Assembly: GCA_963682175.1 (NCBI GenBank)
Contig: OY821777.1
Coordinates: 7,395,501-7,459,500, forward strand
Reading direction: 5' to 3'
DNA: 64,000 nt
Source: Triglochin maritima
Taxonomy: Eukaryota; Streptophyta; Magnoliopsida; Alismatales; Juncaginaceae
The notes beneath the pieces are model-generated. The model saw only the letters and a program-made list of their open reading frames with translations, did no database searches and was not told the origin of the DNA. Of this stretch, positions 477-59,880 are shown piece by piece. Every line of letters begins with the position of its first letter. The stretch's first letter is position 1. A program made the position numbers and the translations under genes.

Positions 477-2586
477 TGTAGGATTTCATGTTTAATTATA
501 CATATATATTTTCGAAATTTTTATGTATAATAAGGATCAATTACAATTTTCTTTGATTTATTTCATGCATGCATCGGTTTGTTTTAACATCTAGTTTCAA
601 AACTCTATTAAAACAAACAAGGGCTCCGAAATTCATACCTAGAAGTTCTCAAAAACTTCTTGAAGATTCGGAGACGTTGGGATGCTTCTCGCCGCGCCGG
701 ATGCCTCCGAGTGTTCACCGAAACCCTAAACAAGGTTGGAGAGAAAGGAGCTAGCCAATCGATCTCCAAACAAGCTTAGAATCTAGCTACAAACCCTTTC
801 CTTAGCCTCTGAGATTTCTCCTTCCAAAGACTTAGAAAACTAAGAGAATTTTCGTGGGTTTTAGTAGTGAATTAGGAGAGAAAATAATTTCTGAATTGTG
901 TGTCACAATTAGGGAGAATGAGGACCTATTTATAGGTTCCAATCTTACTCTTAATCATGGCTATTCTTAAGCCACAGTTTTATGACAATTTCTATCACAA
1001 ACTAATTTCATAATGCATTATATGCACCCACAAAACGTTTGACCAAATTTGGAGCTAATCCAACCATCGATCAAATTAATCTCTTAATAATCAAAGGCAG
1101 AAAATCGACCGCTGTTCGGTTTACCGAGTCCCACTCGGTTAACCGAATTTGTCACGATCGTTTAACCGAGTACGTGACGGATGACCGAATCTTAAGGAGA
1201 AAAATTCTCCTTAACCGATCGGACTAATTCTCGTCCAAGACCGAGTGCTATTCGGTTAACCGAAAATATCGGAACTTGACATTGTTCGGTCGACCGTTTC
1301 TTGTTCGGTACACCGTACCAAAGTTCCAGGCACTTTGGTCAAGTTCGGTCAATCAATTACGATTATCCGTTCCACGTTCGGTTGACCGATCCATAGATCC
1401 TTCGGTCGACCGAACCATAACGGATTACCGAACTTCTACCCGATTTTGCCTATTTCAAATTTTGGATTTATTTCCAACAAAATTTGAACTTAAGGGGGTT
1501 TTTGCAAATTCACAACTTATGCAATGTATTATCCTATGCAACAATAAATTATTGCACCCCATAATATATGCATCTCATATGAATTTATCATGACTCTAAT
1601 TATGTTTATATACAACATAATTGATTTTACTTGTTCACCACATGTGTCATATTTTCTATGAGAAACCCGACACATCATATGAACCAAAAATCAAGCTTCT
1701 TGTTTCACGGTTTTTGCGGTGTGACCTATGGGAGGATCTAAACTAAGTTGGCAGTGATATTAAGAGCATAATATCACAAGCTATAAGCGGTATCTAGCTA
1801 CACATTATAGCTTCCAATTAGTTAGATGTCTTAATTTCACTCGAACCAAAACCCGATCCATTTAGTGATGGAGTGCACCACTTGTGTCCGTCCCTTGCCT
1901 CATGATATTAAGAATACACACAAAGTAGTATTGTGTCATCTTCGTATTAGTATTCATTTCTTGATCTCTTTAAGCTAGTTATAAATATGTGACTTAACTC
2001 AAATCACATTGTGCACATTATAACTTTGCTTTATCAATGGGCCCACTAATATCATCACTCAATTAAGAGGGGCAATAATAATCTTTTGACTAACTATCTT
2101 CTCCAACGAAAGTTATACTTAACCAACCAATGCCTTTACACTACACTGATCGATAGTTCAAGACACTGATCTAATTAAGTATTCCTTAAGCGATCAGATA
2201 TAAGTCTCATATTAAAGGACCAAAGACACAGTAAAATATTAATGACACAGAAACACATTTCTATAATATTTTACTTATTAGGTCTATTCAGTATACAAAA
2301 GTAATATTTTCCTCTTTTGCATACCCGTGTTGTCACTCACTTGTAGAGCTACAATGATCTATGACCAACACGACAATCTTAACTCGGTAATTAATGTTCC
2401 ATGTTAATTACCATGATTGCGAATATCTTTTGTTTTATGTAAACCAATATCTTTTAGATCTCTACGGTTAAGGACCAAGAGCCTATTCCTTAACACTTCT
2501 AAAAGACGAATAACATAAACAAGGAACAAAATGATTTCTAATTCAATTCATAATAATTGACATTTAAAAGTAAAACTTTTAGAACA
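477..2586 (-). mobile_element. LTR-like insertion splitting the copia pol (element C)
   Basis: About 2.1 kb of noncoding DNA interrupts the copia polyprotein between its protease/pre-integrase part (2587-2842) and the HDRLGHPG part (before 470). Read on the minus strand it starts TGTTCTAAAAG and ends AAATCCTACA, the TG..CA ends expected of an LTR. It holds no coding domain. I could not find a matching 5 bp target duplication: the flank is CATTC on one side and has no equal on the other. It may therefore be a solo LTR with a decayed target, a LARD-like remnant, or a recombination product. It contains a loose array of TTCGG...CCGAA palindromes at 1111-1430. Confidence 0.55.
1111..1430. repeat. 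Short palindrome array, TTCGG-NN-CCGAA type (element C)
   Basis: Short dyad sequences recur here: CGGTTTACCG, CGGTTAACCG, CGGATGACCG, CGGTTAACCG, CGGTCGACCG, CGGTACACCG and CGGTTGACCG. Centres (by hand) are about 1121, 1140, 1163, 1182, 1257, 1291, 1310, 1350, 1383, 1407 and 1425. The 18-24 bp pairing is visible, but the longer period is less regular than in the other arrays. Several cores are TTAA or TTGA where the other arrays have TCGA. Confidence 0.8.
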
Positions 2587-5327: not shown

Positions 5328-8300
5328 ATGGCGGCGACTGTAGCGGTGACGTCATCCTCCTCTTCCTCCTCCCACTTGAAGCCCCACCGCCCTCTTCCCT
5401 TCCGGGGTCTCGGAACCTGGACGCGTTCCCGGTCCCTGTTCATGCGCCGACGCCTCCTCACAACCCCGGTACCACCTCAAACCCTTTTTGTGTTCCGACC
5501 GTCGACAAGGCAGAGGCTTTTCGACGGCTTTTCGGTTTTGTGATGTTTTTTTCTTCTTCCGAATTTTGGTGTTTTCGGGTGAGAAAGTTGACGTCGTTTG
5601 GCAAAGATGCTTTGGAAAATGGAAAGAAAAAGTCAGGAGGTATTGAAAGGGAAAAGAGAAAGGAGAGCGGAATTATTTTAAATTTGTTTTTTACTCGGAC
5701 CTAAACAATGAGTTGCGGTCTCGACGAAATTACCGTGGAACTTGAATATGCTGCTTGGTTGGGATGTTGATACGGCTAGGATAAGCATTAGCATACGTGT
5801 ATATATAACGATGGTTGTTGGTTTAGTGATTATATATTATTCGGCTTTGACTAGAATTTTTCAAGGTACAACTCAGCATTCCGTTGAATTTCAACGATTT
5901 GTGATTCATGTTGATGGTAGTTCACTCATAACAAAAGCACGTTCATTATAATTTATAATGGAGCATGGTGTTCTAACATTAGTCATTTCGTCTAGTCGTT
6001 TATATTGTATCCCTAATATGTAAGACTAGTAGTACGCAATGCAAGTTGGCTTAGACAATTCTAATTTAGCTAGTGTTTGCCATGGTATTCAGAATAGGAC
6101 TATTTTTTATATTCAATCTAGGGACCATGCGGTTTGTTTGAGTGAAGTACTCTGGAGGATTGCTGACTAAACAAGATCAGTGGGACACTAAATCTTGGCC
6201 TTGTCATGCCATACTTTTCCTCGATTAGCTTCACTTTATCATCCTTGGGTAATTTTTCAGCAAGAGAGTCTTTTGACCTCGTCCCCCTTTTTTGACAATG
6301 ATTTGGACTTCAGATAAGAAGCCTGTGGGGCTGAAATATTGACTTGATCTTGCCATCCATAGGCTCTACAATCAATGGCGGAACCATAAATTTAATTTTT
6401 TTTGGGGGATATAACAATGTAAAAAAATAGTAGACATTTTTTTTGGGGGACTGCTCCAACGGCGATATAGTGGGTCCCTCTTTAGTTGCTGTATATTGAT
6501 TTTTATTTCCATGTTGCGAATATTGTACTATTTATTTGATTTCTAGTATTTTTTGTTGCTTATTATTTTCTTGGTTTTAAAATACTATTCACAGAATTGT
6601 ACGATGGCAAAGCCCTTGCAATTTGTTAATGAAAAAGTCTATCCTGAAATCCCAAATACAATAATGCCTAGCCCCAGCTTTCCGAAATCACAAGAGAGTG
6701 CAAGGAAATCAGATGTAAGGATACGATTGTTCTCAGGCACAGCAAACCCTTTTCTTTCACAGGTATTTCTCCCCTTTTAGCCTACCCCAACTAGTTTGGC
6801 ATTAAAGGCTTTGCTGTTTTTGTATTTCCCCCTTTTCTGATTTTCCATGTGTTTCCTGTTATAAAATCAGTGGTTGACTTGGAAGTTGTAAAGAATACAA
6901 TTTTTTGGAGCCAACCATTATGATAATTACAAGCATTGAAATATCAAAAGATTAAAACAATGGTCAATATGAGTGTGAATCTAACTTTCCCCCCTAAATA
7001 ATGTTGGTAACTTCTGGATCAAGAAAATGGTTGAAAGCAAGTATCAAGAAGATATTTATGTTGGAAAATTATGGTTTTCTTAAATTATAAGTAGTCATAT
7101 GAGACAATAATCCAAATCTTATCAATATATTTGCATGTGATATTCGAATGCTATTACAATCACATAATCTTTGATTTTGTTCTTTCAAAAATTGTTGTCT
7201 TTCATGGGTTCTTTTTTCCAGTTTACCGTCAAGCCTTTGTGTAAAGAAAAATAGTATATAAAAGAACGAAAAACGATGCCCTTTGATCCATTATTTGAGT
7301 TCGTACACCTTAATCTTGAGCTCTAAAACTTGAGTGAACTACCTTATTCCTTATGAGCTCTTTATTTAATGGAGATACACCTGTCGGCATATCTTCAACA
7401 AAAACTAAGTGCTGTAACACTATCGCAGTATCCTAGATTCCTAGTTACTCTTAGTATTTTGTTTCTTCAGTATCTGCTAATTAAATTGTTTCCATCACCG
7501 TGCATTATATGCTGTCTCAACTCTTAACGATGTCTTCTATTTGTATTTACATACTGATATTATCGTGGAAAATGGTTTGAAGAGTACAGGTTCAATCCTT
7601 TCTATTGGGCTAATTGTTACGTATTTTTAACTTCTGTATATGTCGGTGCTATAATCATGTGATTCATCGAGTAGTTAGGGCGTCTTACTGGTTTTTATTG
7701 ACTTCTTTTTACTGGTGATGGTGGTTCAAAGGAAATTGCACACTATATGGGTTTGGATCTTGGAAGCATCAACATTAAACGATTTGCTGATGGAGAAATA
7801 TATGTACAACTGCAAGAGAGTGTAAGAGGCTGTGATGTTTTCCTGATTCAGCCAACATGTCCTCCAGCAAATGAAAATCTCATGGAGCTACTGGTTATGA
7901 CTGATGCATGTCGAAGGGCTTCTGCAAAAACTATTACAGCTGTCATACCTTACTTCGGGTATGCTAGAGCTGACAGAAAGGTAGCTTCGTCTATTTCTAT
8001 TTCTGTTCATATCAAAACTAGGTCATAGTAAATCTAAAGATGTCACATCAATTCCCTTGTTTTCAGATAGAAATATACAGTTGTTAGGTTTATATACCAG
8101 TATCTTTTGTATAGGCTTGTATATATAAATTTTGGACGAAAGAGCTATACGATGCTTCTTCAATCGGTGGCATCATTGTAGACCATCTGACATTCTGAAC
8201 TGCATGTGTTCAGAGTCAAGGACGGGAATCAATTGCTGCTAAGCTGGTTGCAAATCTCATCACTGAAGCAGGTGCCAATCGCGTTCTTGCATGTGATTTA

Positions 8301-10781: not shown

Positions 10782-13183
10782 TTAGTTTATCGAGCTTAGA
10801 AAGGAAGAAGGGTCAGGAGGGACCGGTACTTCAACTCCACCTTCTAACATCTGCGCCACCTTCTTCATTTAAGGTCGCAGCATAGGTTCCTCTTGAATCT
10901 TGACAAATCTTTCTAACCTCCTTATATCTGCTATCGCTTCTGTGTCATGCTTCGTCAGTTCATCCAACCTCCCCATTCTGTAGCAATCACAAGCCCAATC
11001 TGTTAATATTGCTTCTTGTCCTTCCCCGTGACTATTCTCGACATTTTTACGACAACAAATAATCTCCAATAGCATTACACCGAAGCTGTAGACATCTACT
11101 TTTGTTGAAATTTCTGTTGTCTTGAACCATTCTGGTGCCACATATCCCTTTGTTCCCCTAATACCTGTATTTGTCTTGGTCTGGTCAGTCCTCATGAGTT
11201 TTGCCAACCCAAAGTCAGAGACCTTTGGTGTAAAGCAATCATCTATAAGCACATTCTGTGGCTTTATGTCACAGTGAATGATCTGTTTCTCACATTCTTC
11301 GTGCAAGTAGCGCACACCCTTGGTAATACCATACACAATTTCAGTCCTTCGATTCCAGTTGGGTTTTAAAGAAGTTCGTCAATGAGCCATTGCTCATGAA
11401 CTCATACACCAGAAGTCGATTTTCCCCCTCGTTACAGTACCCAAGTAGCCGAACAAGATTCTTGTGATGGGTTTGGGCTATATGACTTTTACTTCGTTCA
11501 TAAATTCTTTCTCAGCTTCTTCAATGTTGATTAGCTTTTTGACTGCAACTTGAATACTAGTGTTCCATAGGAAGATCCCCTTGTATACAATGCCAAATGC
11601 ACCTCTGCCTAGTTCCTCTTTAAAACCTCGAGTGGCCTTCTCAAGCTCATTGTATGTAAAAGAGCGAAGGCTGGTACCTAACATGCTTAAATCGTGGTGC
11701 TGGAGATTTTGGTTTTTTACCATTCTACGACGAGAGCAGCAGATTAGAAACAGACCTGCCATGAGAAAGTTTACTAGAACAGAGCCTCCAAGCAGCAACG
11801 AGCCAGTGAGGACCAGCACCTTATTGTTTTTTTTTTAAACACTTGAACAGCTGGTGGCAGCGTTGTGTTAGTGGTACTTGTGTTCTCTCTTAGTACTTTA
11901 AGTAAAGCCTTTCCTTGATCGACCTTTCTTCCATTTGTAAGTGGTAATTTCTTCTTCCAACAATCTCCATTCCTGTAAATGGCAACAGCACAGAAACAAT
12001 CTTTCAAGCACTCAGCGGTACAACCATTTTCAGTGAGGCCAGTCAGATGCTCGTAGTCGGCCTTTGGCCAGTCTGCACTCATAAACGGTATCATTTCATA
12101 CTGGCTACCCAAGCTTGTTCCATTTACCTCACTTTTTTGCGTGGGAAATTCTGGTATGCATCCTTTATCTTTTCTTGATGGATCCATGAATGTATATCTT
12201 GGAAGGCAGCTACATTTTGGCATATTTTCTTCTATTGTGCAATAAGCATTGTAGCCGCAGGCTCCACTGCCTGCATCGCTTGTTACTACCATGCAGATAT
12301 TTGGTGGAACTTGATCCACAATTATCCACCTTTCCCTGTTTGATCCATCGAATGAAAATATATATAGGCGAAATACTCCATCTGGATCAAGTGTTGCCCT
12401 TTGGTAGGTGCCATTTTTTAGGACTGGTCCGGACATGATGTTCTCCTGTGATTTACCATCACCTACAGCCAGGTCCACACCACCAGATTTACCAAAAAGT
12501 AGGAATGAGCCATTCCCGACGGTATCAGTGCTCCAATAAGGATCATACTGTGTTGAGGTTGGGACAGCAATAGAGTAGAGCACAAGATTCCCATCTTGTT
12601 GCATGGCAAGCTTGAATCTACCATCAGACTAGTCAGTCTCTGTTAATCGAGCAATAAGATTGATTCCTTTGCTTAGCTGTTGCATTGGCAACATTGTGTC
12701 ACTTGGGTTTTCAAAGCTTTGCCACTGGAAATTATTGGAGCCTGCTGATGCCAGCACAAAGTTACCATTATCCAGCATTGCTGCATGTGTTGTGCCCATG
12801 CTGCTATTGTCGTTTTCGGTCCTCCAGACTTCTGTGTCGTTGTGATCACGGAGCCGCAGCTGCCCACCAGGTGTAACTTCCACCTTTGAGCCTGTTCCGA
12901 TAAGAGCGTTTGGAATAGGCTTTGCAAACCAAACGGTTTTGTCTGCAATCTTGTCGAACCAAATCCCCAGGATGAACTGGTTGCTTTTGGGTTGCACGGG
13001 GAGGAAGCCGAAGGCAAAATCACCTGAGAGGGAGACCCATGAAGAGTCCCTTTCTCCTGCAGTAAGTGACGAGCCTAAGTTTATATTTTGAGCTTTTGTA
13101 AAGTGTGGGAGCATCATTGCTCCCATAACCATCAAGAACATGTGTGGAAATGGGAAAGTAGCTGTAGAGGCCATGTTTCTCAA
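10782..13183 (-). pseudogene. G-type lectin S-receptor-like Ser/Thr kinase (LECRK type), pseudogene
   Basis: An intronless receptor kinase. Order: signal peptide (MRNMASTATFPFPHMFLMVM), bulb-type lectin domain (QNINLGSSLTAGERDSSWVS, WQSFENPSDTMLPMQQ), Cys-rich/EGF-like region (CGYNAYC, CSCLPRY), PAN-like region, transmembrane helix near 11780, and a kinase with [34 protein letters not shown] and [10 protein letters not shown]. Lesions: in-frame TAG at 12629-12631; a frameshift in a run of ten T on the plus strand (11827-11836) before the membrane helix; a frame break after NEVKVI (about 11478); a further one-base shift after NGSLTNFF (about 11360); loss of about five residues before [12 protein letters not shown] at 10869-10871; then residual MKKVAQMLEG to a final stop at 10782. 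The homopolymer shift alone could be an assembly error, but the set of lesions argues for a dead gene. Confidence 0.9.
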
Positions 13184-14812: not shown

Positions 14813-16676
14813 TGTAATAATCTTAACCTAAAACACCCTAATTAAACTAAACTAAACCTAATTAACCTTAATTAAGCTTGAATAGTAAAGCATGAGGTGG
14901 AAGAATTGGATAAGATTTGGATTTTGCTATAAATAGAGATGCTAGGTTAAGAAAAACGTTTTCTTCATAATTTGGTTTCTTCAGAGAGTGAGAGAGGTGA
15001 ATTTGGAGAAGAAGAAGGAAAGAAGGAGAAGGAGAGGAAGTGAAGGAGAAGAGTTGGGTTGAGTTTGCCAAAGCTTGGGAGGCTTCCACAAACGTCAATA
15101 AGGTATGTCAAATCTTCAATATAACTCACTTAAGCCTTGTGAGTGTTGGGGATCGACGTTGGTGTCGAATTCCCCGTCGGATTGCAACCTGTTCAGAGGT
15201 CGAAGACGACGATCGGTCGACCGGTGCCTGTGGGCAGTCGACTGATCCTATTATTATATTGATTTGCACCCGCGAACGACCGAACGATGTCGTAGGACGG
15301 TCGACCGTTATGCCAGATTTGTGCGGGAAAAAGGGGTTGACGTTGTTATCGGTCGAACGGGTCCACTTAGCCGGTCGACCGAAACAATGAGAATAGGTCG
15401 GTTAGGGATTTTGACTTATTAAACGGTCGAACATCCTTAACCTGGTTCGACCGATCTATTCGATGCTAAGTCTGTTGGGAGCTTTGACCATCAAAACGGT
15501 CGACCGCTCTTTAACTTTCGGTCGACTGACTGAGCATTTTAATTAAGCAGTAGAGTGTCTTTGATCTTTCAGTCGCACAGTATCTCTGTTCCGGTCGACC
15601 GAATATGACTTGGGCAAAATGCTGAGATCCCTGTTATCGGTTGAACAACCCCTTGGTTCGACCGGTCGGATATATAAATATTATAAATATTGTATAGCGT
15701 AGATCATCCAAACGGTCGACCGCTAGATGACTTTTGTTCGACCGATGGGTCGGTAATTCGGTTGGTGTGGTTCGACCGATACACTTGTTTGTACAGTACA
15801 GAGTACTGTGCGGAGGACCGGTCGACCGGTGTGCTTGTAGCGGTCGACCGATCTGCCGCAGGTTGGTGGATTTATCCACACGCGAGCCGTCGAGTATAGG
15901 TCGACTACCGGCTCCGAGGCGACGGTCGATTACCGGCCTTGAGAGCGACGGATTTCACCTTCGACGAGGGCGTATTATTGTTGGCCTCTCACATCGAGCG
16001 GGGTGTGAGAGATGAGTGCCGTAAACCTTGGGATGTTTGATGAGGTTTGTCGGTAGGCCGAGGATGTTCCGGCAGGGTGCGCGTCGGGCGGCTCTTGGGG
16101 GAGCAACGGCTGTCGTCTGACCCGAGTTGTGTATTCGGCGACCTGACTCGCTCCTGGGGTGGCAGCGTAGTGCCAGAGTTCCTTTCTGCACTCTTGGGGA
16201 GCAGTGGTGCCGACTGACCCTTGTGAGGCAGCGGTTGACTGACTTGACCCTCGTGGTGGCAGGAGTGGTTCAGAGTATTATTGTGGACCCGAGGCTGATG
16301 ATCATGTGCATTGCATTGCATTGTCTTTAATTCCATTTTGTATTTTAGGAGGTTTGGTATACGGGGTTCCTTCAGGGAACTCAGGCATGTTTCAATTGTT
16401 TTCATTTCAGGTAGCGAGTTGCATTAGAGTCGAGGTGGTGACTGAGGAGAGTGCCCCCGGGATCTGATCATGTAGTTGTCAGTCTCTTCCTTTTTTAAGT
16501 GATTACATATTGTATAGTTTTTGTTGTAATCACAGTCAGTTTGTATATTTGACTTCCACGTGGATTTTTTATATTATATATATATATATGTTGGTTGTTT
16601 CCCGTGACGTGTCATTGTTGACCGTTGACTATCTTTTATATGGTTTAAATTTTGCGTTGTTGTCGGGGACGTTACA
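14813..16676 (+). mobile_element. Solo LTR, family A (Ty3/gypsy-type), TSD CATTC
   Basis: A 1864 bp segment starting TGTAATAATCTTAACC and ending TCGGGGACGTTACA, flanked by the perfect 5 bp duplication CATTC (14808-14812 and 16677-16681). No internal coding domain lies within or beside it, so it is a solo LTR. It holds a TATA-like stretch near 15668-15690, a purine-rich GAGAAG tract near 14985-15050 and the palindrome array at 15214-15850. A homologous solo LTR lies inverted at 23805-25778, and a diverged copy at 55615-58714 is followed by a gypsy gag. Short ORFs inside are incidental. Confidence 0.92.
15214..15850. repeat. Paired palindrome array CGGTCGACCG (family A solo LTR 1)
   Basis: About twenty copies of CGGTCGACCG or near variants (GGTCGAAC, GTTCGACC, GTCGACTG). 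Centres by hand: 15218.5, 239.5, 281.5, 302.5, 354.5, 376.5, 428.5, 448.5, 501.5, 523.5, 574.5, 596.5, 642.5, 659.5, 717.5, 739.5, 773.5, 823.5, 845.5. Most neighbours are 20-22 or 51-53 bp apart. Little between the palindromes is conserved from unit to unit. Confidence 0.92.
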
Positions 16677-20592: not shown

Positions 20593-20597
20593 CATAT

Positions 20598-21414
20598 TGT
20601 TGTTGTTTACCTTGAATATGTATTTAAAGTATTCGTGCAGAAAAACAGACGATCGGTCGACTGGAATGAGATGTTCGGTCGACCGGGTGTGTGTTGAATT
20701 GTCCAGCAAAAGTGTCTGTCCATTTTCGGTCGACCGGAATCTAGGATTCGATCGACCGAGCACATACGAGGAGCTGGGAGAAAAGTGCCTGTTGATTTTC
20801 GGTCGACCGGAACTTAAGTGATTCGGTCGACCGAGTATGCACTCACGCAATAAAGAAAAGTTACTGTCGTTTTTCGGTCGACCGGTACTTTAGTTGCGGT
20901 CGACCAGCAAAAGCTGGTTTGCGATACGGTTAAAGGATCGGTCGACCGAAGCACACGTTCGGTCGACCGAAGCACACGTTCGGTCGACCGTTTGGACCCA
21001 GTTCTGTCCACGTTTTGCATATTTCTCCACGCGATTTTGGTGCAATTAATACTTATTTAGGCCTACTATATAAAGGCAATTTCGTCCCCCTTTGCTTAAG
21101 GTTAATTCTTATTGTTTACTTTGCATTCTTGAGAGAAGAGAGAGAGCATCATTGTTGATTCGTTGGGAGAATTTGAGCTGGGTATCTTCGCCGGTTTGTT
21201 CGCGTCTCCTGTAAGCCTCTCTCTGTAATACGTTTCTCTATAGTGAATTTAGAGTTGTGTCGTCCGTGGTTTTTCCCGCATTGGGTTTCCACGTTAAATC
21301 TTGCGTGTTTTGTGTGGTTTGAATTTTGGATTTGCATTTGATCTCAATTATTAGTCAATTGAATTTGCTATTTCGATTCCGCTGCGTATTTGAGATTGGT
21401 TTTAATTCCTAACA
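20598..21414 (+). mobile_element. Solo LTR (copia-like), TSD CATAT
   Basis: An 817 bp segment starting TGTTGTTGTTTACC and ending GGTTTTAATTCCTAACA, flanked by a perfect CATAT duplication (20593-20597 and 21415-21419). TATA-like ACTATATAAAGGC lies near 21064. The 3' part includes TTCCGCTGCGTATTTG, a motif I associate with SIRE/Maximus-type copia LTR ends. It holds the cleanest palindrome array of the window (20654-20990) upstream of its TATA. No coding domain, so a solo LTR. Confidence 0.9.
20654..20990. repeat. Most regular paired palindrome array (73 bp period)
   Basis: Eleven palindromes of the CGGTCGACCG type. Centres: 20658.5, 680.5, 731.5, 753.5, 804.5, 828.5, 879.5, 901.5, 943.5, 964.5, 985.5. 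Spacings are 22, 51, 22, 51, 24, 51, 22, 42, 21, 21. The first four pairs repeat every 73-75 bp; the last three palindromes form a 21 bp tandem repeat (CGGTCGACCGAAGCACACGTT). The array lies in the U3-like part, ending about 75 bp before the LTR TATA-like box. Confidence 0.95.
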
Positions 21415-21515
21415 CATATAATCTGGGACTAATAATGCTGACTAAGCTCAATGCGAACCTATACATAACCATAGGCCCCGATAGGCTGCATTATTACATA
21501 CATCAGTCCATAATT

Positions 21516-21721
21516 TAGGGGTGAGCATAACCCGGTCCGAAACTTTTTGAAATTTCGGTTCCGATCCGGTCCGATTCGGACCGATCTGATTTTTTGTTTT
21601 AAAAATCCAGTTTTGGACCGATCCGGTCCGGTCATCGGTCCAAAGTCATCCGGTCCGGTCCAGTCTTCGGTCCGGACCTCGAAAAAATTCCGGTCCAGTC
21701 CAGACCAGATGCTCACCCCTA
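21516..21721. mobile_element. hAT-like MITE with perfect 8 bp TSD
   Basis: A 206 bp element with 12 bp perfect terminal inverted repeats (TAGGGGTGAGCA and TGCTCACCCCTA), flanked by the perfect 8 bp duplication CCATAATT (21508-21515 and 21722-21729). The 8 bp target and TAGGG start fit the hAT superfamily. The interior is rich in CGGTCCGG and TTCGGTCC motifs. No transposase is encoded, so it is non-autonomous. Confidence 0.92.
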
Positions 21722-23804: not shown

Positions 23805-25778
23805 TGTAACGTACCCGAAAACAGCGGAAAATTTAAACAATAACAAAGACCGTCAATGGTCAACACTGGGCACGTCACGGGAATAAACCAACATATATAT
23901 ATATATAAACTATATCAGGTACAGACCCACGTGGAAGTCAACTATACATACTATACCGACTGACTGGGATTACAACAAAAACTATACAACATGTAATCAC
24001 CTCAAAAAAAAGAAGACAACTACAGGATCCGATCTCGGGGGCACCGTCCTCGGTCACCACCTCAAACTCTAACCCTGCTCGCTACCTGAAATGCAAACAA
24101 CAAACATGCCTGAGTTCCCTGCAGGAACCCCGTATACCAAACCTCCTAAAATATAAAAAGGAATTAAAGACAATGCAATGCTATGCACATGATCATCCGC
24201 CTCGGGCCCACAATAATGCCCTCACCGCCTCCGCGGCACTGAACCACTCCTGTCACTAGGGTCAAGTCAGTCCACCGCTGCCTCACAAGGGTCAGTCGAC
24301 ACCACTGCTCCCCAAAACGTGCAGGAAGGAACCCCCGGTACACGCCGCACCCAAGGAGCGAGTCAGCCCGCCGAATACACAACTCGGGTCAGACGACAGC
24401 CACTGCTCCCCCAAGAGTCGCCTAGCGCGCACCCTGCCGGAACATCCTCGGCCTACCGCTAAACCCTCGCAAACAGCCCAAGGTTTACGGTACACATCCC
24501 TCACACCCCGCTCGGTAAGAGAGGAAAAAGGTACAACAATAATACGCCTTCGTCGAAGGTGAAATCCGTAGCTCTCAAAGCCGGTAATCGACCGTCGCCT
24601 CGGAGCCGGTAGTCGACCTGACATCGACGGATCGCGTGTGGATAAATCCACCAACCTGCGGTAGATCGGTCGACCGCTACAAGCACACCGGTCGACCGGT
24701 CCCCCACACAGTACACAGTACTGTACAAACAAATCTACCGGTCGAACCACGCCAACCGAATTACCGACCAATCGGTCGAACAAAAGTCATCTAGCGGTCG
24801 ACCGTTTGGAAGGTCTACGCTATACAATTTTATATAATATATATATCCGACCGGTCGAACCAAGGGGCCGTTCGACCGATAACAGGGATTTCAATAATTT
24901 GCTCAAGTCTCGTTCGGTCGACCGGAACTGAAATACAGTTCGACCGAATCAACACAAGCACTCTACCGCTTAATTAAATGCTCAGTCGGTCGACCGAGAG
25001 TTAAAGAGCGGTCGACCGTTTTGATGGTCAAAGCTCCCAACCGACTTAGCATCGAATGGATCGGTCGAACAAGGTAAGGACGTTCGACCGTTTAATAAGT
25101 CAAAATCCCCAACCGACCCATTCTCATCGTTATTCGGTCGACCGGCTAAGTGGTCCCGTTCGACCGATAACAGTAAAATCCCCTTTTTCCCGCACAATCT
25201 GGCATAACGGTCGACCGTCTAACGACATCGTTCGACCGTTCGCGGGTAAATATCAATATAATAATAGGATCGGTCGACTGCCCACAGGCACCGGTCGACC
25301 GATCGTCGTCTTCAACCTCTGAATTGGTTGAATTCCGACGGGGAATTCGACACCAACGTCGATCCCCAACACTCACAAGGCTTATGTGAGTTATAATGAA
25401 GATTTGGCATACCTTTTTGACGGTTGAAGAAGCCTCCCAAGCTTGAGTCACTTCACTCCTCTTCTTCTTCCTTCTTCTCCTTCTTCTCCTCTTCTTCTAC
25501 TTCACCTCCTTCTTCTTCTCCGACGTTCACCTCCTCTCACTCTCTGATAACAAGCAATGATGAAAGAAACGACCAAACCCTTATCTCTTAACAACATCAC
25601 CTTAAATAGCCAAATCCACCTACACCTCATCCAATCACACTTAACCTAAAACTCAACCAACCAAAGCCATCCACCTCAACCTCCACATGTCCAACACCTC
25701 CACTTCTCCATGCAGGATTAATTAGGGTTAATTAGGTTTAGGTTTAGTTAATTAAGATGTTTAGTTTAGGTTATTACA
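23805..25778 (-). mobile_element. Solo LTR, family A, inverted copy, TSD GGTTG
   Basis: A 1974 bp copy of the LTR at 14813-16676 in the opposite orientation. In plus orientation it starts TGTAACGTACCCG and ends TTAGGTTATTACA. The perfect duplication GGTTG flanks it (23800-23804 and 25779-25783). The conserved blocks match the first copy, for example ITHxSLVSVGDRRWCRIPRR if read as codons and DDRSTGACGQSTDPIIILI. This reflects DNA homology, not a protein. It disrupts the DUF761 coding end and holds the palindrome array at 24667-25301. Confidence 0.93.
24667..25301. repeat. Paired palindrome array (family A solo LTR 2)
   Basis: Centres of the CGGTCGACCG-type palindromes by hand: 24671.5, 693.5, 743.5, 777.5, 799.5, 856.5, 873.5, 919.5, 941.5, 991.5, 25013.5, 066.5, 085.5, 139.5, 161.5, 212.5, 233.5, 275.5, 296.5. 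Dominant spacings are 19-22 and 50-54 bp, as in the first copy. Many units are a full palindrome paired with a GTTCGACC or GGTCGAAC variant. Confidence 0.92.
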
Positions 25779-27817: not shown

Positions 27818-29327
27818 TGTAGGATCGTGTGGGTTATGGGTCCACTAATCACTTTTAATCTAATCCCTAATTTTCTACTTGATTAAGCAAACAAATGCGC
27901 AGCGGAATAAACAAACAAGTAGAGAAAGAAAGACAATGCAAACCACAAAAGACGCGTCGGTTTTTATAGAGGTTCGGCACCCCACCCGGGTCCTAGTCCT
28001 CTCTTGTAAGCTCCGCTCGACTCCACGAGCTCCGCCTACGTCTTCACTAACCACTCCCCGTTCCGGGCCGGGAGAGAACACCTTTACACCACAAGCAACG
28101 CGAACAACCCTCGCTTGCTTGAATTCTTCCTCTCACAATCCGAGAGGGACACTTCGGGCTTTCACCGAAGTCCTTGCTTCTTTTGACAACACTTGTAACT
28201 GAGTGGGATTCACTCTCTAATTGAGCACACTTTGAGTAGGATGAGTATATGATCAAATGTGTGAAGTTTAGGCTTAAAGAGTGTAGAATTGGGAGCTTTG
28301 AGGATTGAGGTTTCTCTCTAATGTATTGGGACAATTGGAGTTGGAGAGTTGTGTTAACAACAAGTCTTGATCCTCTATTTATAAGCTCCTAAGGTATTCT
28401 AGCCGTTGGGAATAGATTTGATTGGGTTTTGTGCAAGATACACAAAGCAGAAAATCGGGCTGCAAATCTGTCCAGAACCGGTCGACCGAAACTAGTAAAC
28501 CGGTCGACCGTTAACTTGATTTCAAAGAGAACGGTCGAACAAAAGAATATTCGGTCGGACAAACGAGCTAGAACTTAACTCTACTTAAGTGAATCGGTCG
28601 AACCAAAGAATGGGGCGGTCGACCGAGAAGGGGATTCGGTTGAGACAAAGGTCAATCGGTCGAACGAGAAATGTGTCGACCGATAGCAGGGAATTTGGTT
28701 TCTGAAAATATGTTCAACCGGTCGACCGAAACAAGGTCTTCGTTCGACCGGTTACCGAATGTATTTTGGGGTTAAGTTTTGTTTTATACGAATACGACCG
28801 TTATAGGAATACGACAAGAAAAACGGTCATATTAAAATCCAGGATCGGTCGACCGAAAAGGTAGAACCGGTCGACCGGTAGAGTTCGGTAAAATCACTGT
28901 GGAGAGTCTGTTATAAACCGGTCGAACTGAGAACTGGTTCGGTCGACCGGTTCACACAGGAAATCTGGTTTTAAGTTTATAAGTGATTTCCGACTAAGGT
29001 TTGGGTGATCTAATGAAGTCCAAATAATGTGAAATTTCGTGTGTGACTTCTATAGGGAACCTATTGTGTATGTGATTGGTTTTTAACTCTTGTATGCTCA
29101 ATTTACACATGTTCCTAAGACTCAAAATAAAATCAAGATTACAAGTCTTCATTTAGCTTTATTACAAATCTTGACTTGATTTCCTTCCTTCCATGAGTCT
29201 TGATCACCTGTAGAGGTTAGCACATGCAATATATATGCAATGCAATATGTGTGCTACTCTACATCATCATAATTAAGATTAGGTTAATTAAATCATCAAA
29301 ACCTAGATTAAGGCCAAAAAGCCAACA
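27818..29327 (-). mobile_element. Solo LTR, family B (copia SIRE-like), TSD AAGAC
   Basis: A 1510 bp LTR on the minus strand, starting TGTTGGCTTTTTGGCCTTAA and ending ACGATCCTACA. It is flanked by the perfect duplication AAGAC (27813-27817 and 29328-29332). The TTTTGATGAT near its start and TTCCGCTGCGCATTTG near its end resemble SIRE/Maximus-type copia LTRs. A close relative is at 56100-57602. It carries the palindrome array at 28479-28949. No coding domain. Confidence 0.92.
28479..28949. repeat. Paired palindrome array (family B solo LTR)
   Basis: Centres by hand: 28483.5, 505.5, 536.5, 556.5, 599.5, 620.5, 641.5, 661.5, 677.5, 723.5, 745.5, 850.5, 872.5, 923.5, 944.5. Spacings are 22, 31, 20, 43, 21, 21, 20, 16, 46, 22, 105, 22, 51, 21. 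The pair spacing of 20-22 bp is kept; the inter-pair distance is more variable than in 20654-20990. Confidence 0.92.
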
Positions 29328-29585: not shown

Positions 29586-30207
29586 GAAGCCATATATTAT
29601 TCCGGACTGCAAATACACTTATTCCGGACTGCAAATACACTTATTCCGATTCCGGACAGCAAATACACTTATTCCGGACAGCAAATCTACTTATTCCGGA
29701 CAAGCTTTATGTTCCGTTTCTGGACACACTTTATTCTAAAACCGGACAACAAATACACTTATTCCGGACAACAAATACACTTATTCCGGACAAACTTTCT
29801 GTTCCGTTTCTGGACACACTTTCTTCTTATTCTGGTCAACTACACTTATTCCGGACTGCAAATACACTTATTCCGGACAGCAAATACACTTATTCCGGAC
29901 AAGAAATCAACTTATTCCGGACAAACTTTATGTTCCGTTTCTGGACACACTTTATTCTTAAACCGGACAACAAATACACTTAGTCCGGACAACAAATACA
30001 CTTATTCCGGACAGCAAATACACTTATTCCGGACAAACTTTCTGTTCCGTTTCTGGACACACTTTCTTCTTATTCTGGACAACTACACTTATTCCGGACT
30101 GCAAATACACTTATTCCGGACAAGAAATCAACTTATTCCGGACAAACTTTATGTTCCGTTTCTGGACACACTTTATTCTTAAACCGGACAACAAATACAC
30201 TTATTCC
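29586..30207 (+). repeat. 22 bp minisatellite with a 221 bp higher-order unit
   Basis: About 17 copies of a unit of about 22 bp, AATACACTTATTCCGGACAGC and variants, interspersed with a longer variant (TTTATGTTCCGTTTCTGGAC). The TATGTTCCG blocks recur at 29711, 29932 and 30153, exactly 221 bp apart; CTGTTCCG blocks lie at 29801 and 30043. The long open frames across it come from the repeat and should not be called genes. Confidence 0.93.
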
Positions 30208-51744: not shown

Positions 51745-53146
51745 GTAAAAGTTAGATGTAACAAAACTTGGACTCTTGTCCCTCTTAAATCCGGAGTCAA
51801 ACCTGTAGGATAGGATGTAAATGGATTTATAAAATTAAATATAATAGTAATAGAACTATAGAGATATATAAGACTCGTCTTGTAGCAAAAGACTACACTC
51901 AAACTTATGGGTTAGACTACTTAGAAACCTTCGCTCATGTAGCTAAGATGAACACAGTTCGTGTTCTCCTATCTATAGTCATAAACAAAGGATGATCTTT
52001 CAAATGGATGTTAAAAAACACTTTTCTCCAAGGGAACCTTGAAGAAGAAGTTTACATGACACCTCCTCCGGGCATCAATTCAACTCCCAATCAAGTATGT
52101 AAGTTGCACAAATCAATCTACGGATTGAAACAATCACCTCGCGCATGGTATGCCAAGCTAAACCTATCTTTTTAAAAAGCTCCGCAGATGCTTCTATGTT
52201 TATTAAACACTATAATAACATCACTACTATAGTTTTAGTCTACGTTGATGACATTATTATCACAGGATATTGTGATAAAGAAATAACTCTGGTTAAAAGA
52301 TACCTAAAATCAAAATTTGACATAAAGGACCTTGGTTTCTTAAAATATTTTCTAGGAATAGAATTTGCTTATTCAAAAAGGAGGTTGTTTTTATCTCAAA
52401 GAAAATATATTCTTGACTTGCTACATGAAACTGGTAAGTTAGGATCCAAACCGGCCAACACCCCTATTGAGACAAATCGCAAGGTTGGTCCAACAGAAGG
52501 TGAACCAATTAAGGACATCGGTCAATTTCAAAGACTAGTTGGAAAACTCATCTATCTCATTGTTACTAGGCCAGATATCACCTATGTCGTAACCACTGTT
52601 AGTCAATTCATGCATGCTCCACACACACATCACCTAGATATAATTGATCATATTATGTGTTATCTCAAGAAAACTCCAGGACAAAGACTATAGATGAGAC
52701 AAAATAATTCTAATACCATAATTGATTACTCGGATGCAGATTGGGCCAGAAGTCATGATCGAAAATCCACTACGGGCTTCTACACATTCGTAGGAGGCAA
52801 CCTTGTAACTTGGAGAAACAAAAAACAAAATGTTGTGGCTAGATCAAGCGCTGAAGTTGAATACCGTGCTATGACCTCAACTACAAGTGAACTCATATGG
52901 CTCAAGCAACTTTTCAAAGACATGAAACAACCATACACCGATCCAATGCAAATTTTCTGTGACAACAACGCCGCGCGCCACATAGCATCAAATCCAGTCT
53001 TCCATGAAATGACTAAACATATCGAGGTTGATTGTCACTTCATCCGTGAGAAGATCCAATCAAAAGATATAGAAGTTCCTTACATTCCAAGCAAAGAACA
53101 ACTTGCTGACATTTTTACCAAAGGGTTGGATCACAAACAGTTTTAA
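51745..53146 (+). mobile_element. Ty1/copia reverse transcriptase-RNase H remnant
   Basis: A degraded pol end. Reverse transcriptase blocks in order: [70 protein letters not shown], then YVDDIIITG (the catalytic YVDD box) and FDIKDLGFLKYFLGIE. RNase H blocks: YSDADWARSHDRKSTTGF, ARSSAEVEYRAM and the CDNNAA stretch. The final part, PSKEQLADIFTKGL, ends the polyprotein at 53146. Frameshifts near 51810 and 52170 and stops (TGA near 51994, TAG near 52691) kill it. Gag, protease, integrase and the 5' LTR are absent. Confidence 0.9.
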
Positions 53147-55614: not shown

Positions 55615-56065
55615 TGTATCCTAACCATTGATTAACGGTTAATGGTATTTAGGTGATGGCTTGGAGAGGTTTTGAGATGGACGTTTGAGATCAATTTTGA
55701 GAAGTATGAGGTATAATCTCTCTCTCTCACACACACACTCACACACTCTCATCTCTCTCTCGCCTCCTCTCTCAACCCATTTCTCTTCCGGTTTGAGGCG
55801 CCGACGACGTGGGGTGACCGGCGAGCACGAGTGTTGCAGTTGGAGTTGCCGGAGGTGCAAAGATCGTCGCTTGTGTGAGGAGTTCGTCGGAAAATAAGAG
55901 CGGGTGCGAGGAGACGCTCGTCGTGGGTCTTCAAAGGCTTCTTCAAACCTTAAATGTATGTCAAACTTGCTTTTACGCTCACCTAAGTTTCGTGTGAGTG
56001 TTGGAGCGGTTGACGGTAGACCAAAAGGCTCGTTGGACTTCTGTTCAGCAGTTTTTCTGTTGTGT

Positions 56066-56096
56066 TCGGTCGACCGAATGGTGTTTCGGCCGACCA
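56066..56096. repeat. Two palindromes left of the nested LTR (gypsy LTR)
   Basis: CGGTCGACCG (centre 56071.5) and CGGCCGACC (centre 56091.5), 20 bp apart. They are the start of the host LTR array, which continues at 57603 after the nested LTR. Confidence 0.85.
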
Positions 56097-56099
56097 TTG

Positions 56100-57602
56100 T
56101 GTTGGCTTTTTGGCCTTAATCTATGTTTTGATGATTTAATCAGCCTAATCTTAATTGTAATCATATAGAGTAGCACACATATTGCATTGCATATATATTG
56201 CTTTGTGCAAATCTCTACAAGTGATCAAGACTCAAGAAACAAAAGAAATCAAGCTAAGACATGTAATCAAGCTCATTTGAAAACATATAATTTGCATTTC
56301 TTTGAGTCTTATAAACATTGTGTAAATTGAGCATACTTGAGCTAAAACCTACTCAAACACACACTAGGTTCCTTATAGAAGTCACACACAAAATTTCATA
56401 TAATTTGGACTTTAATAGATCACCCAACACCCAAACTTAGACCAGAAAATACTAAACACCTAACCTGAACTGTCTGCCCACATTCAGTCGACCGAAACAG
56501 ACCGTTCGGTCGACCGAGTGATCATTAATCATGTTAAGTGTTTTACTGTCCAGTTTCGGTCGACCGTGTATACCTTTTCGGTCAACCGTGTAAACTTATT
56601 TATCTGACCGTTTGTTTTGTCGTATTATATCCAACGGTTGTATTTGTATTATTTCCATATACACCAAAATACATTTAGTGTATCGGTCAACCGAGGACCT
56701 TGTTCGGTCGACCAAACTTAAGATGTCTCGACAAACCAAAAGTGCATGTCGGTTTTCGATTGACTGTATTCCTTGTTTTGGTCGACCGAATATGATCTTG
56801 TTTGTCAACCCCGTTGAGCCTGTTAGAAATCGGTCGACCAAATCTATCTCGGTGTTTGACAGATCACTTAAGTGTACCTAAGTCATAGCCTTTGGCGGTC
56901 GACCGTTCCTTAACCGGTCGACCGAACCTTGGTCAAAGTTGCCAACAGTCAACCGTTCTGTCCGATTCGGTCAACCGAACTTTATCAGAATTAGGTCCTG
57001 TCAGTTGTTGGTTTATGTATCTTACACAATCTTTACCCATTTCATCCCCAACAGCTATTACTATTTAGGAGCTTATAAATAGAGTTGTAAAACACATTTT
57101 AACACAACTCTCCTACTCCATATTGTCCCCTACATTAGAGAAAAAGCTTCATACACTCAAAAGTTTCCATATTAAGTAATCAATTACATATCTTACTCAA
57201 GTGTACTCAAGATTAGAGAGTGTTGTTCCACTCATTCATTATCAAAGAAGCAAGGGCCTTGGTGAAAGCACAAGACAAGAGTATAGACTTCGGTGAGAGC
57301 TTGATGTGTCTCTCTCGGATTGTGAGCGGAGGAGCCAAGCTCGCGAAGGGTTGTTCGCGAGCTTGAAGATTGTAAATGTGTTCTCTCTCAACCCGGAACG
57401 AGGAGTGGTTAGTGAAGTCGTAAGCGGAGTTCTGTGATCCGAGCGGAGCTTGCAAGAGAGGACTAGGACCCGGGTGGGATGCCGAACCTTTGTAAAATCA
57501 CCCGTCTCCATTGTGGTTTGCATTATTTCCTTTCCTTTACCTTTCTTGCTTGTTTATTTGTTTTAATTCCGCTGCACATCCTTGATTGATTACTCCTTGC
57601 AC
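56100..57602 (+). mobile_element. Nested LTR, family B (copia SIRE-like)
   Basis: Starts TGTTGGCTTTTTGGCCTTAA, the same start as the solo LTR at 27818-29327, and follows it closely (GTAGCACACATATTGCATTG in both). It ends near CTCCTTGCA after TTCCGCTGCACATC. The length, about 1503 bp, agrees with the 1510 bp of the other copy, though the last 60 bp differ. It lies inside the gypsy LTR palindrome array. Flanks CATTG and CCGGTTG do not form a clean target duplication. No internal coding region, so a solo LTR nested in an LTR. Confidence 0.82.
56485..56977. repeat. Paired palindrome array (nested family B LTR)
   Basis: Centres by hand: 56489.5, 511.5, 561.5, 583.5, 688.5, 709.5, 761.5 (degenerate), 783.5, 835.5, 900.5, 919.5, 950.5, 972.5. 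Spacings are 22, 50, 22, 105, 21, 52, 22, 52, 65, 19, 31, 22. Several cores are TCAA rather than TCGA. Confidence 0.9.
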
Positions 57603-58040
57603 CGGTTGAATGATGCTTCATGTGGTCGACCGGTCAAGTATGCTAGGCAAGCTCTGGGTGTGTTTGGTCGAACGGGTCCCTTTTGTCGTTCGATCGAAGC
57701 ACTATTTTAAGTCGGATGGGGGTGTAGACAAGAAAACAGTCGACACCCTGAGATCTCATTCGACCGATGACTTATATTTAACTTCAAGTTTGTTCGACCA
57801 ATTGTTGTTTTAGTCGACCGGTATAGTTTGGTTCGATCTTGAGTTTACTGGTGGCTTTTGGTCGAACGGGTCCCTTTTGTCGTTCGACCGATGAGGTGTT
57901 GAATTTAATATTAATTGTGGCGTAGACCATCCAAACGGTCGACCGTCAGAGACCTTCTGCTCGACCGATCGCGGAGACGGTCGAATGCCTGCACGCTCTA
58001 AGGAGGAACTGGTCGACCAGATGGCTTGTTCGGTCGACCA
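57603..58040. repeat. Paired palindrome array, second part (gypsy LTR)
   Basis: Centres by hand: 57607.5, 627.5, 669.5, 691.5, 741.5, 761.5, 795.5, 814.5, 863.5, 885.5, 940.5, 962.5, 982.5, 58014.5, 035.5. Pairs are 19-22 bp apart and most gaps between pairs are 42-55 bp. Confidence 0.9.
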
Positions 58041-58814: not shown

Positions 58815-59880
58815 GATGACACCGAGACGTGTGAGACCTCCTCCCCGGGATCGTAGCACCAGTTATGAGGTTGGTAGGGGTAGACAAGGAGGACTGGAGG
58901 ACGCTCCATGACACTATGGGCAGGCTGGGCGAGTTTCTAGAATGCCAGTTTGCCCAGGCTGAGCATGGAGGAGTAGGTGTGGTGTTTGAGCGGTTCATGC
59001 GTCAACATCCCCCATCTTTCGATGGTCGTGGCAACCCTGAGATAGCGGAGGACTAGGTCTTCAAGATCCAGAAGATTTTTTGGGCGATAGGATGTCCTTC
59101 TGAGAGGAATGTGGATCTGGCCACCTATGTTTTGGAAGACGGAGCAGTCGACTGGTGGAGGTCTACTTCAGTTGTGGTTTTCGAGGACAGTGAGGAGTTG
59201 AGCTGGGAGGAATATTTTGCGGAGTTCAAGCAGCAATACTTTCCACAACACGCCCGTGACTGGAAGATGGAGGAGTTTCTAGCTTTAGAGCAGATGGACA
59301 TGACTCTGGCAGCCTACATTAGTAGATTACACGCTTTAGAGCGTTATTGCCCAGAGATATATGTGATACAGGAGCAGAGAGCTCGGAAGTTTGTGCAGGG
59401 TCTGAGGCCGCAGTTTAGGACTCGAGTTACCATGAGCATGCCGTAGAGTTTAGCTGACATCGTCAAGTTTGCGACCGTTATGAACCAGGATAGCCAGGAG
59501 ATCATTAAGGAGGCTAAGAGGTCGCAGGTGAAGGTCAGAGTGCATCCAGGGGGCAATCTTCAAGGAATCCGAGCAAGAGGCCCCGGATTGACGGAGGTGG
59601 AGCACCGCAGTTTTGGCAGTGCAGGCAGTGTGGTGGAGTTCATCTCGGGCGCGGGTGCGTGCCCCGTTCAGGTGCTTGTCATGGTTGTGGCCAGCTGGGT
59701 CACTTTATCCGTTCTTGCCCGAGTAGGCTAGGCGTGCCTAATATTCGACCGGGATCATCCACAGCTGGTGGAGCTGGATCGAGTCGATTAGTTGCACCCT
59801 CTTAGCAGGGGAAGAGAGTCGGACGTGTTTTCACCATCCAGGCGGACGAGGCTAGGGATGTCAGCACGGTGGTGGAAGGT
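58815..59880 (+). mobile_element. Ty3/gypsy gag with CCHC knuckle, truncated element
   Basis: After an ATG at 58815 (MTPRRVRPPPRDRS) a frame break leads into a Retrotrans_gag-type domain: HPPSFDGRGNPEIAED, AVDWWRSTSVVV, SWEEYFAEFKQQYFPQHARD, EFLALEQMDMTLAAYISRLH and ARKFVQGLRPQFRTRVTM. A further frameshift near 59570 leads to CRQCGGVHLGRGC and the CX2CX4HX4C knuckle CHGCGQLGHFIRSC. In-frame stops are at 59054-59056 and 59444-59446. Homology fades just after the start of the protease region (VVEGTLYVDD, about 59880). Reverse transcriptase, integrase and the 3' LTR are missing. Confidence 0.9.

What the first reader, a model, noticed from the sequence alone, without database searches (positions are those of the whole stretch)
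20654..20990. Phased pairs of CGGTCGACCG palindromes with a 73 bp period
Eleven near-perfect dyads have centre spacings 22, 51, 22, 51, 24, 51, 22, 42, 21, 21. Pairs lie two helical turns apart and repeat every 73-75 bp, and almost all spacings are near multiples of 10.5 bp (2, 4 or 5 turns), so the dyads face the same side of the helix. Sequence between palindromes is poorly conserved. This looks like an array of binding sites for a dimeric protein, or a structural array; 73 bp is also half a nucleosome core, which may be coincidence. The array sits just upstream of the LTR TATA-like box. I know of no described element with this architecture.
Basis: partly seen in the sequence, partly recalled or inferred. 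Interest (0 to 1): 0.9.

Follow-up and report, generated by a model that had tools for sequence, protein, structure and literature searches.

The report
Helically phased palindromes in plant retrotransposons
In this plant genome, which holds 359,535 copies of one ten-letter palindrome, long terminal repeats of both great retrotransposon superfamilies carry it in arrays whose spacings keep to whole turns of the DNA helix, and these arrays likely serve as docking platforms for a shared host DNA-binding protein that would switch the elements on.

Summary
The eleven dyads and their spacings are real. They lie in a complete solo LTR, 20598-21414, with target-site duplication CATAT, 76 bp upstream of a TATA-like box. 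The motif is not undescribed: Bousios et al. 2010 (PMC2829016) list CGGTCGACCG as the LTR repeated motif of a Vitis Sirevirus. New here: (1) Helical phasing holds beyond this LTR: with one array per family the best period from 6 to 16 bp is 10.5 bp, again on another contig and in copia and gypsy arrays taken apart. (2) The genome has 359,535 exact copies against 90 for the reversed control. (3) Arrays sit in Sirevirus-type copia, in classic copia (the family of this LTR) and in Ty3/gypsy LTRs, although the motif was described as Sirevirus-specific. (4) The commonest non-CpG variant sits on the inner half of close pairs (29 vs 8; window 17 vs 1), and hairpin tests on the larger sets are at chance. 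This favours cooperative protein binding on one DNA face. The protein and any enhancer activity are untested.

The parts
20593..20597 (.). Left target-site duplication CATAT
20598..21414 (+). Complete solo LTR (family F1, 817 bp, TGTTG...TAACA) that holds the array
   Evidence: left end matches the LTR start after a polypurine tract in L027
20654..20990 (+). Array A3: eleven CGGTCGACCG dyads in phased pairs
21067..21073 (+). TATA-like box (cTATATAAAG), 76 bp after the last dyad
21377..21389 (+). TTCCGCTGCRYAT near the LTR 3' end; its only other window matches are near the 3' ends of the A5 and A6 LTRs
   Evidence: 3 matches, 0.17 expected
21415..21419 (.). Right target-site duplication CATAT
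14813..16676 (+). Solo LTR of gypsy-like family F2 with array A2 (15214-15850), duplication CATTC
23805..25778 (-). Solo LTR of family F2 with array A4 (24659-25301), duplication CAACC in LTR orientation
27818..29327 (-). Solo LTR of Sirevirus-type family F3 with array A5 (28479-28949), duplication GTCTT
56100..57584 (+). LTR of family F3 with array A6 (56485-56977), nested in the A7 LTR; right end not resolved
56007..56096 (+). Array A7, first part, in a Ty3/gypsy LTR
57623..58040 (+). Array A7, second part, after the nested F3 LTR
59057..59443 (+). Ty3/gypsy gag piece downstream of the A7 LTR
   Evidence: Retrotrans_gag 2.7e-15; Ty3_capsid 1.1e-6, just below its cut-off
1117..1412 (-). Array A1, more degenerate; LTR ends not resolved

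Best explanation
The array is the upstream repeat block of an 817-bp solo LTR, its dyads come in pairs and keep to whole helical turns, and it likely works as a cooperative docking platform for a dimeric host DNA-binding protein that would drive transcription from the TATA-like box 76 bp downstream. Each CGGTCGACCG would bind one dimer; two dimers about two turns apart would form a 32-bp module; modules repeated a whole number of turns apart would line up on one face of the DNA. Shown: the motif, the 10.5-bp phasing, the pair as a unit (the commonest non-CpG variant lies on the inner half-site), gains and losses of 72, 44 and 21 bp between two copies of this family, and the same code in copia and gypsy LTRs. 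Inferred: that a protein binds, that it comes from the host, and that it activates. Families relying on one host factor would converge on, or exchange, this module, which would explain about 360,000 copies in one genome.
For: Phasing: best period 10.5 bp with one array per family, on a second contig, and apart in 10 gypsy and 9 copia arrays (relatives not collapsed). Copy number 359,535 vs 90 for the reversed pattern; 86,109 exact pairs 19-23 bp apart vs 0. Pair polarity: G3->T variant inner 29, outer 8 in 99 unique close pairs of the C9 sample; 17 and 1 in 39 of the window; reversed in far neighbours, 6 and 28, 0 and 19. No compensation in the sample: both partners carry the inner variant in 2 pairs, 2.1 expected. 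Module indels of 72, 44 and 21 bp between A3 and its L027 relative. Dyads kept better than spacers: 94.9 vs 88.4% between A2 and A4. Position before a TATA-like box in F1 and F3, as published for Sirevirus motifs.
Against: No binding protein is known; Bousios 2010 found no common factor. In gypsy LTR A2 the clearest TATA-like site lies upstream of the array, others inside it, so one position relative to the promoter does not hold for all. The dyad-over-spacer difference in F1 is not significant (95.0 vs 87.8%, p = 0.066), and dyads were picked by their match in the reference copy. Small indels of 2 and 3 bp also occur. Units and families share ancestry, so independent events are fewer than the counts. 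Inside the window, the scan's best period was 15.9 bp for all adjacent spacings and 6.0 for those of 26 bp or more without A3.
Confidence: 0.6

Rival explanations
1. The dyads act in RNA: neighbouring copies pair into hairpins that feed small-RNA production or serve the element's transcript, and selection keeps the stems.
For: Strong predicted folds: z -9.65 for A3, -7.70 for A2. Maize Sirevirus palindromes are small-RNA hotspots (PMC10760457 and PMC5311732, passages). In the window, partner shuffling across all arrays gave p = 0.0006 and within families p = 0.04; spacer self-pairing p = 0.042 and flank pairing p = 0.0013 over 49 pairs; both-inner variants 4 against 1.8 expected.
Against: Shuffling within arrays p = 0.16, orientation flips p = 0.16. 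In larger deduplicated sets (43 and 37 pairs) spacers do not strengthen hairpins (combined Z between -0.73 and 0.51). No compensation in the C9 sample. Helical phasing at 10.5 bp is not required by a hairpin. Flank pairing follows in part from the single dyad's own flanks.
Confidence: 0.15
2. An ordinary tandem repeat: slippage or unequal exchange multiplies a 21- or 73-bp unit and the phasing is a by-product of unit length.
For: A3 units share part of their spacers (63 of 123); copies differ by whole units.
Against: Families combine different spacings (about 21, 42, 52, 63, 73, 95, 106) that share the phase; gypsy and copia arrays show it separately; dyads outlast spacers between A2 and A4.
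Confidence: 0.13
3. A host silencing or methylation factor reads the CpG-rich dyads.
For: CpG observed/expected 1.33-1.92 in the arrays against 0.76 for the window. CpG transitions are 45 of 92 single-base variants, as methylation would give.
Against: Elements keep and multiply the sites; sites of pure harm to the element should be lost. This is argument, not a test.
Confidence: 0.1

Closest known systems
Sirevirus LTR repeated motif (RM), Bousios et al. 2010, PMC2829016; the Vitis RM is CGGTCGACCG
   Same: Identical decamer; 8 or more copies clustered in the upper half of the LTR before a TATA box; CpG-rich; function unknown.
   Different: Described as Sirevirus-specific and absent from classic copia elements; here in classic copia and Ty3/gypsy LTRs too. 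The sections I read (6, 7, 9, 10, 12, 13, 19) do not mention helical phase, pairing or half-site polarity.
Palindromes of maize Sireviruses Ji and Opie as small-RNA hotspots (Bousios 2016, seen only through passages of PMC5311732 and PMC10760457)
   Same: Palindrome-rich regulatory part of the LTR.
   Different: Other motif (CACCGGACNNNGTCCGGTG); read there mainly as RNA secondary structure. The 2016 paper itself is not held.
Plastic 5' CpG islands of Del (Ty3/gypsy) LTRs, Cruz et al. 2014, PMC4029996 (passages)
   Same: Variable CpG-rich block in gypsy LTRs.
   Different: Not found there in the eudicot Del group; the text has no word beginning 'palindrom'.

Membership tests
Sirevirus (family F1, to which this LTR belongs, through its relative in L027) | Palindromic CGG-CCG motif cluster upstream of TATA in the LTR | tested here: met
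Sirevirus (family F1) | Long linker between pol and 3' LTR (0.52-3.96 kb; classic average 0.078 kb) | tested here: not met
   About 82 bp in L027 by my reading; yardstick
Sirevirus (family F1) | AGGGGGAG polypurine tract, several copies, terminal one followed by AT/TG | tested here: not met
   Terminal tract is AGGTGGAG then AT/TG; no cluster of AGGGGGAG before the LTR
Sirevirus (family F1) | 5' LTR junction CA/A(T or G)TGG + TATCAGAGC | tested here: inconclusive
   CAACTGGTATCAGAGC, one base off
Sirevirus (family F3, arrays A5 and A6, through L035) | Several AGGGGGAG tracts before the 3' LTR, terminal AT/TG | tested here: met
   Five tracts at 7228-7562, LTR from 7571; AGGGGGAGAT/TG; copia gag between the LTRs
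Sirevirus (family F3) | 5' LTR junction CA/ATTGG + TATCAGAGC | tested here: inconclusive
   CATTTGGTATCAGAGT, two bases off
Ty1/copia (F1, and L034) | Copia-type gag and reverse transcriptase with the array-bearing LTR | tested here: met
   L027: Retrotran_gag_2 2e-35, SH3_retrovirus 1.3e-22, RVT_2 9.9e-69; L034: Retrotran_gag_2 1.3e-14 between LTRs 99.5% identical
Ty3/gypsy (A7; L029 family) | Gypsy-type coding domains next to the array-bearing LTR | tested here: met
   Retrotrans_gag 2.7e-15 after the A7 LTR; Integrase_H2C2 1.6e-18 and SH3_Tf2-1 4.9e-28 before the array in L029
Transcription-factor enhancer array | Sites in one helical phase | tested here: met
Transcription-factor enhancer array | Protein binding and effect on transcription | not testable with these tools
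   needs binding and reporter data

The most novel reading that the evidence does not exclude
One host DNA-binding protein has imposed a common, helix-phased cis-code (paired CGGTCGACCG dyads in modules of whole turns) on LTRs of Sireviruses, classic copia and Ty3/gypsy elements alike, so that unrelated retrotransposons compete for the same activator and have seeded about 360,000 ready-made sites across one plant genome.
Probability: 0.45. Interest if true: 0.85.

Novelty: new variant of a known kind. Interest (0 to 1): 0.72.

Why it matters
Sirevirus palindromes have been in print since 2010 without a function, and the later papers I saw treat them mainly as RNA structure and small-RNA targets. 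Helical phasing and half-site polarity point instead to a protein on one face of the DNA, which a simple spacing assay can test. Sharing across superfamilies suggests that the factor comes from the host. If so, these LTRs would be a genome-wide source of phased regulatory sites next to genes.

Tried and rejected
Hairpin covariation within close pairs looked significant when partners were shuffled across all arrays (p = 0.0006) and weakly within families (p = 0.04); it did not hold within arrays (p = 0.16) or under orientation flips (p = 0.16). The imbalance is half-site polarity. A second motif (CTGT) before the first dyad was not above chance: top 4-mer p = 0.17. Spacer likeness between gypsy F2 and copia arrays: a few nominal p values (down to 0.004) among 84 comparisons, not taken as real. 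The 12 viral-contig loci with paired dyads have GC 0.53-0.69 and 2-11 dyads each and look like coincidences; an F3 LTR probe found none there. L013 could not be typed by Pfam; that it is plant DNA is my judgement. Host species not identified: relatives of two window proteins are weak. Genome-wide counts for other spacing bins could not be had. Papers: PMC2829016 outline and sections 6, 7, 9, 10, 12, 13, 19 (section 11 as a passage); PMC10760457, PMC5311732, PMC2820488, PMC12016029, PMC6712407, PMC4029996 and PMC11656987 as passages; the rest as listings; Bousios 2016 not held. Searches behind the statement that I found no paper on helical phase of such arrays: 20 of 34 listed; 20 of 72; 15 of 331.

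Full report
What is there. The stated dyads and spacings are exact. They occupy positions 57-393 of an 817-bp solo LTR, 20598-21414, flanked by the duplication CATAT and running from TGTTG to TAACA. A TATA-like box, cTATATAAAG, begins 76 bp after the last dyad. The left LTR boundary is confirmed by a relative in L027, whose LTR begins with the same 20 bases directly after a polypurine tract.

Wider occurrence. The window has seven arrays. Three more solo LTRs with perfect 5-bp duplications hold A2, A4 and A5. A6 is an LTR nested in the gypsy LTR that holds A7; its right end, and both ends around A1, are unresolved. In the whole genome (1,063,122,952 bases) the exact decamer occurs 359,535 times, against 90 for the pattern read backwards. 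Exact pairs 19-23 bp apart number 86,109, against 0. Twenty 10-kb stretches taken at fixed steps along part of the window's contig hold 121 exact sites; 9 of the 20 have none even at one mismatch.

Phasing. In those 200 kb, 172 adjacent spacings (up to one mismatch, up to 200 bp) fall at 18-25 (80 of them), 32-34, 38-43, 47-57, 62-66, 72-77 and beyond, with none at 26-31, 35-37, 44-46 or 58-61. I grouped 24 arrays (17 sample, 7 window) into 10 families by blastn and took one per family. The best period between 6 and 16 bp was 10.5 for adjacent spacings (91, |R| 0.52, null maximum 0.34) and for all pairs up to 220 bp (363, |R| 0.33, null maximum 0.17). Adjacent spacings of at least 26 bp alone (47) give p = 0.0002. 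The first 100 exact sites listed on contig C1, in 11 distinct arrays of three or more, repeat the result: 10.5 bp for 205 pairs, |R| 0.48, null maximum 0.20. Ten gypsy and nine copia arrays, relatives not collapsed, each peak at 10.5 bp. Inside the window alone the evidence is weaker: adjacent spacings of at least 26 bp without A3 give p = 0.028, and the best period in some subsets lies elsewhere, 15.9 or 6.0 bp. Units and families share ancestry, so independent events are fewer than these counts.

The pair is a unit. Among 92 single-base variants, beside 161 exact dyads, 45 are CpG transitions and 27 are one change, G3->T. That change falls on the half-site facing its near partner: 29 inner and 8 outer in 99 unique close pairs of the sample, 17 and 1 in 39 of the window. 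Between far neighbours the bias reverses, 6 and 28, 0 and 19. Both partners carry it together in 2 sample pairs (2.1 expected) and 4 window pairs (1.8 expected). Spacers do not strengthen a hairpin in 43 and 37 deduplicated pairs. Against this, 49 window pairs showed slightly raised spacer self-pairing (p = 0.042) and flank pairing (p = 0.0013). Two dimers or a tetramer with weaker inner contacts would give the polarity; a selected hairpin predicts compensation, which is not established.

Which elements. The F1 relative in L027 has copia gag, SH3 and reverse-transcriptase pieces in order, then about 82 bp from the pol end to the LTR by my reading: a classic copia by the yardstick of Bousios et al. 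2010. F3, with A5 and A6, is Sirevirus-type: L035 has five AGGGGGAG tracts before its 3' LTR and copia gag between its LTRs. L034 is another copia with arrays in both LTRs. The A7 LTR precedes a gypsy gag, and in L029 the array follows a gypsy integrase. F2 (A2, A4) is tied to A7 by matching spacers (17 of 20), not by its own coding part. A3 and A6 spacers match (16 of 20, p below 0.001), while gypsy and copia spacers show nothing that survives 84 comparisons. Copia families may share an array by descent or exchange; sharing with gypsy is convergent or too old to see.

How it changes. A3 and its L027 relative differ by indels of 72, 44 and 21 bp inside the array and by small ones of 2 and 3 bp, so modules come and go in near-whole turns. 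Dyads are better kept than spacers between A2 and A4 (94.9 vs 88.4%); between A3 and L027 the difference is not significant (95.0 vs 87.8%, p = 0.066).

Mechanism and limits. I read the array as a docking platform for a dimeric host protein acting on the nearby promoter. Binding, host origin and activation are inferred. In gypsy LTR A2 the clearest TATA-like site is upstream of the array, so action there would be independent of position, or different. RNA folding is strong, as palindromes alone would give.

Outside the genome. Contig L013, filed under an Acidobacteriota genome but plant-like in my judgement, has dyads at 21, 53, 21, 73 and 21 bp; the search pattern fixed the first two spacings, the other three are free.

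Known and new. The motif, its clusters, CpG richness and place before TATA are published for Sireviruses, with exactly this sequence in a Vitis element, and no common binding factor was found. I found no paper on helical phasing of such arrays, or on this decamer in gypsy LTRs, in the searches, in an open-licence library that lacks Bousios 2016.

Noticed in passing
L013:2479-2677 (JAFAOU010000159.1): Contig filed under an Acidobacteriota genome carries a plant-like phased dyad array (21, 53, 21, 73, 21 bp), probably contamination.
   Followed up: partly
window 29597-30207: Nested tandem repeat with 22-, 90-, 131- and 221-bp periods around TTATTCCGGACA.
   Followed up: no
window 21520-21720: Short stretch of CCGGTCC / GGACCGG repeats just after the solo LTR, with strong predicted folding (21581-21710).
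   Followed up: no
window 10869-13183 (-): Pieces of a lectin receptor kinase: protein kinase and B_lectin domains.
   Followed up: no
window 52103-52690 (+): Copia reverse-transcriptase fragment (RVT_2, 4.3e-17) with no array near it.
   Followed up: no
L023:1562-9622: Young element: direct repeats of 821 bp 99.8% identical around a 1077-residue open frame; no dyads at one mismatch.
   Followed up: no
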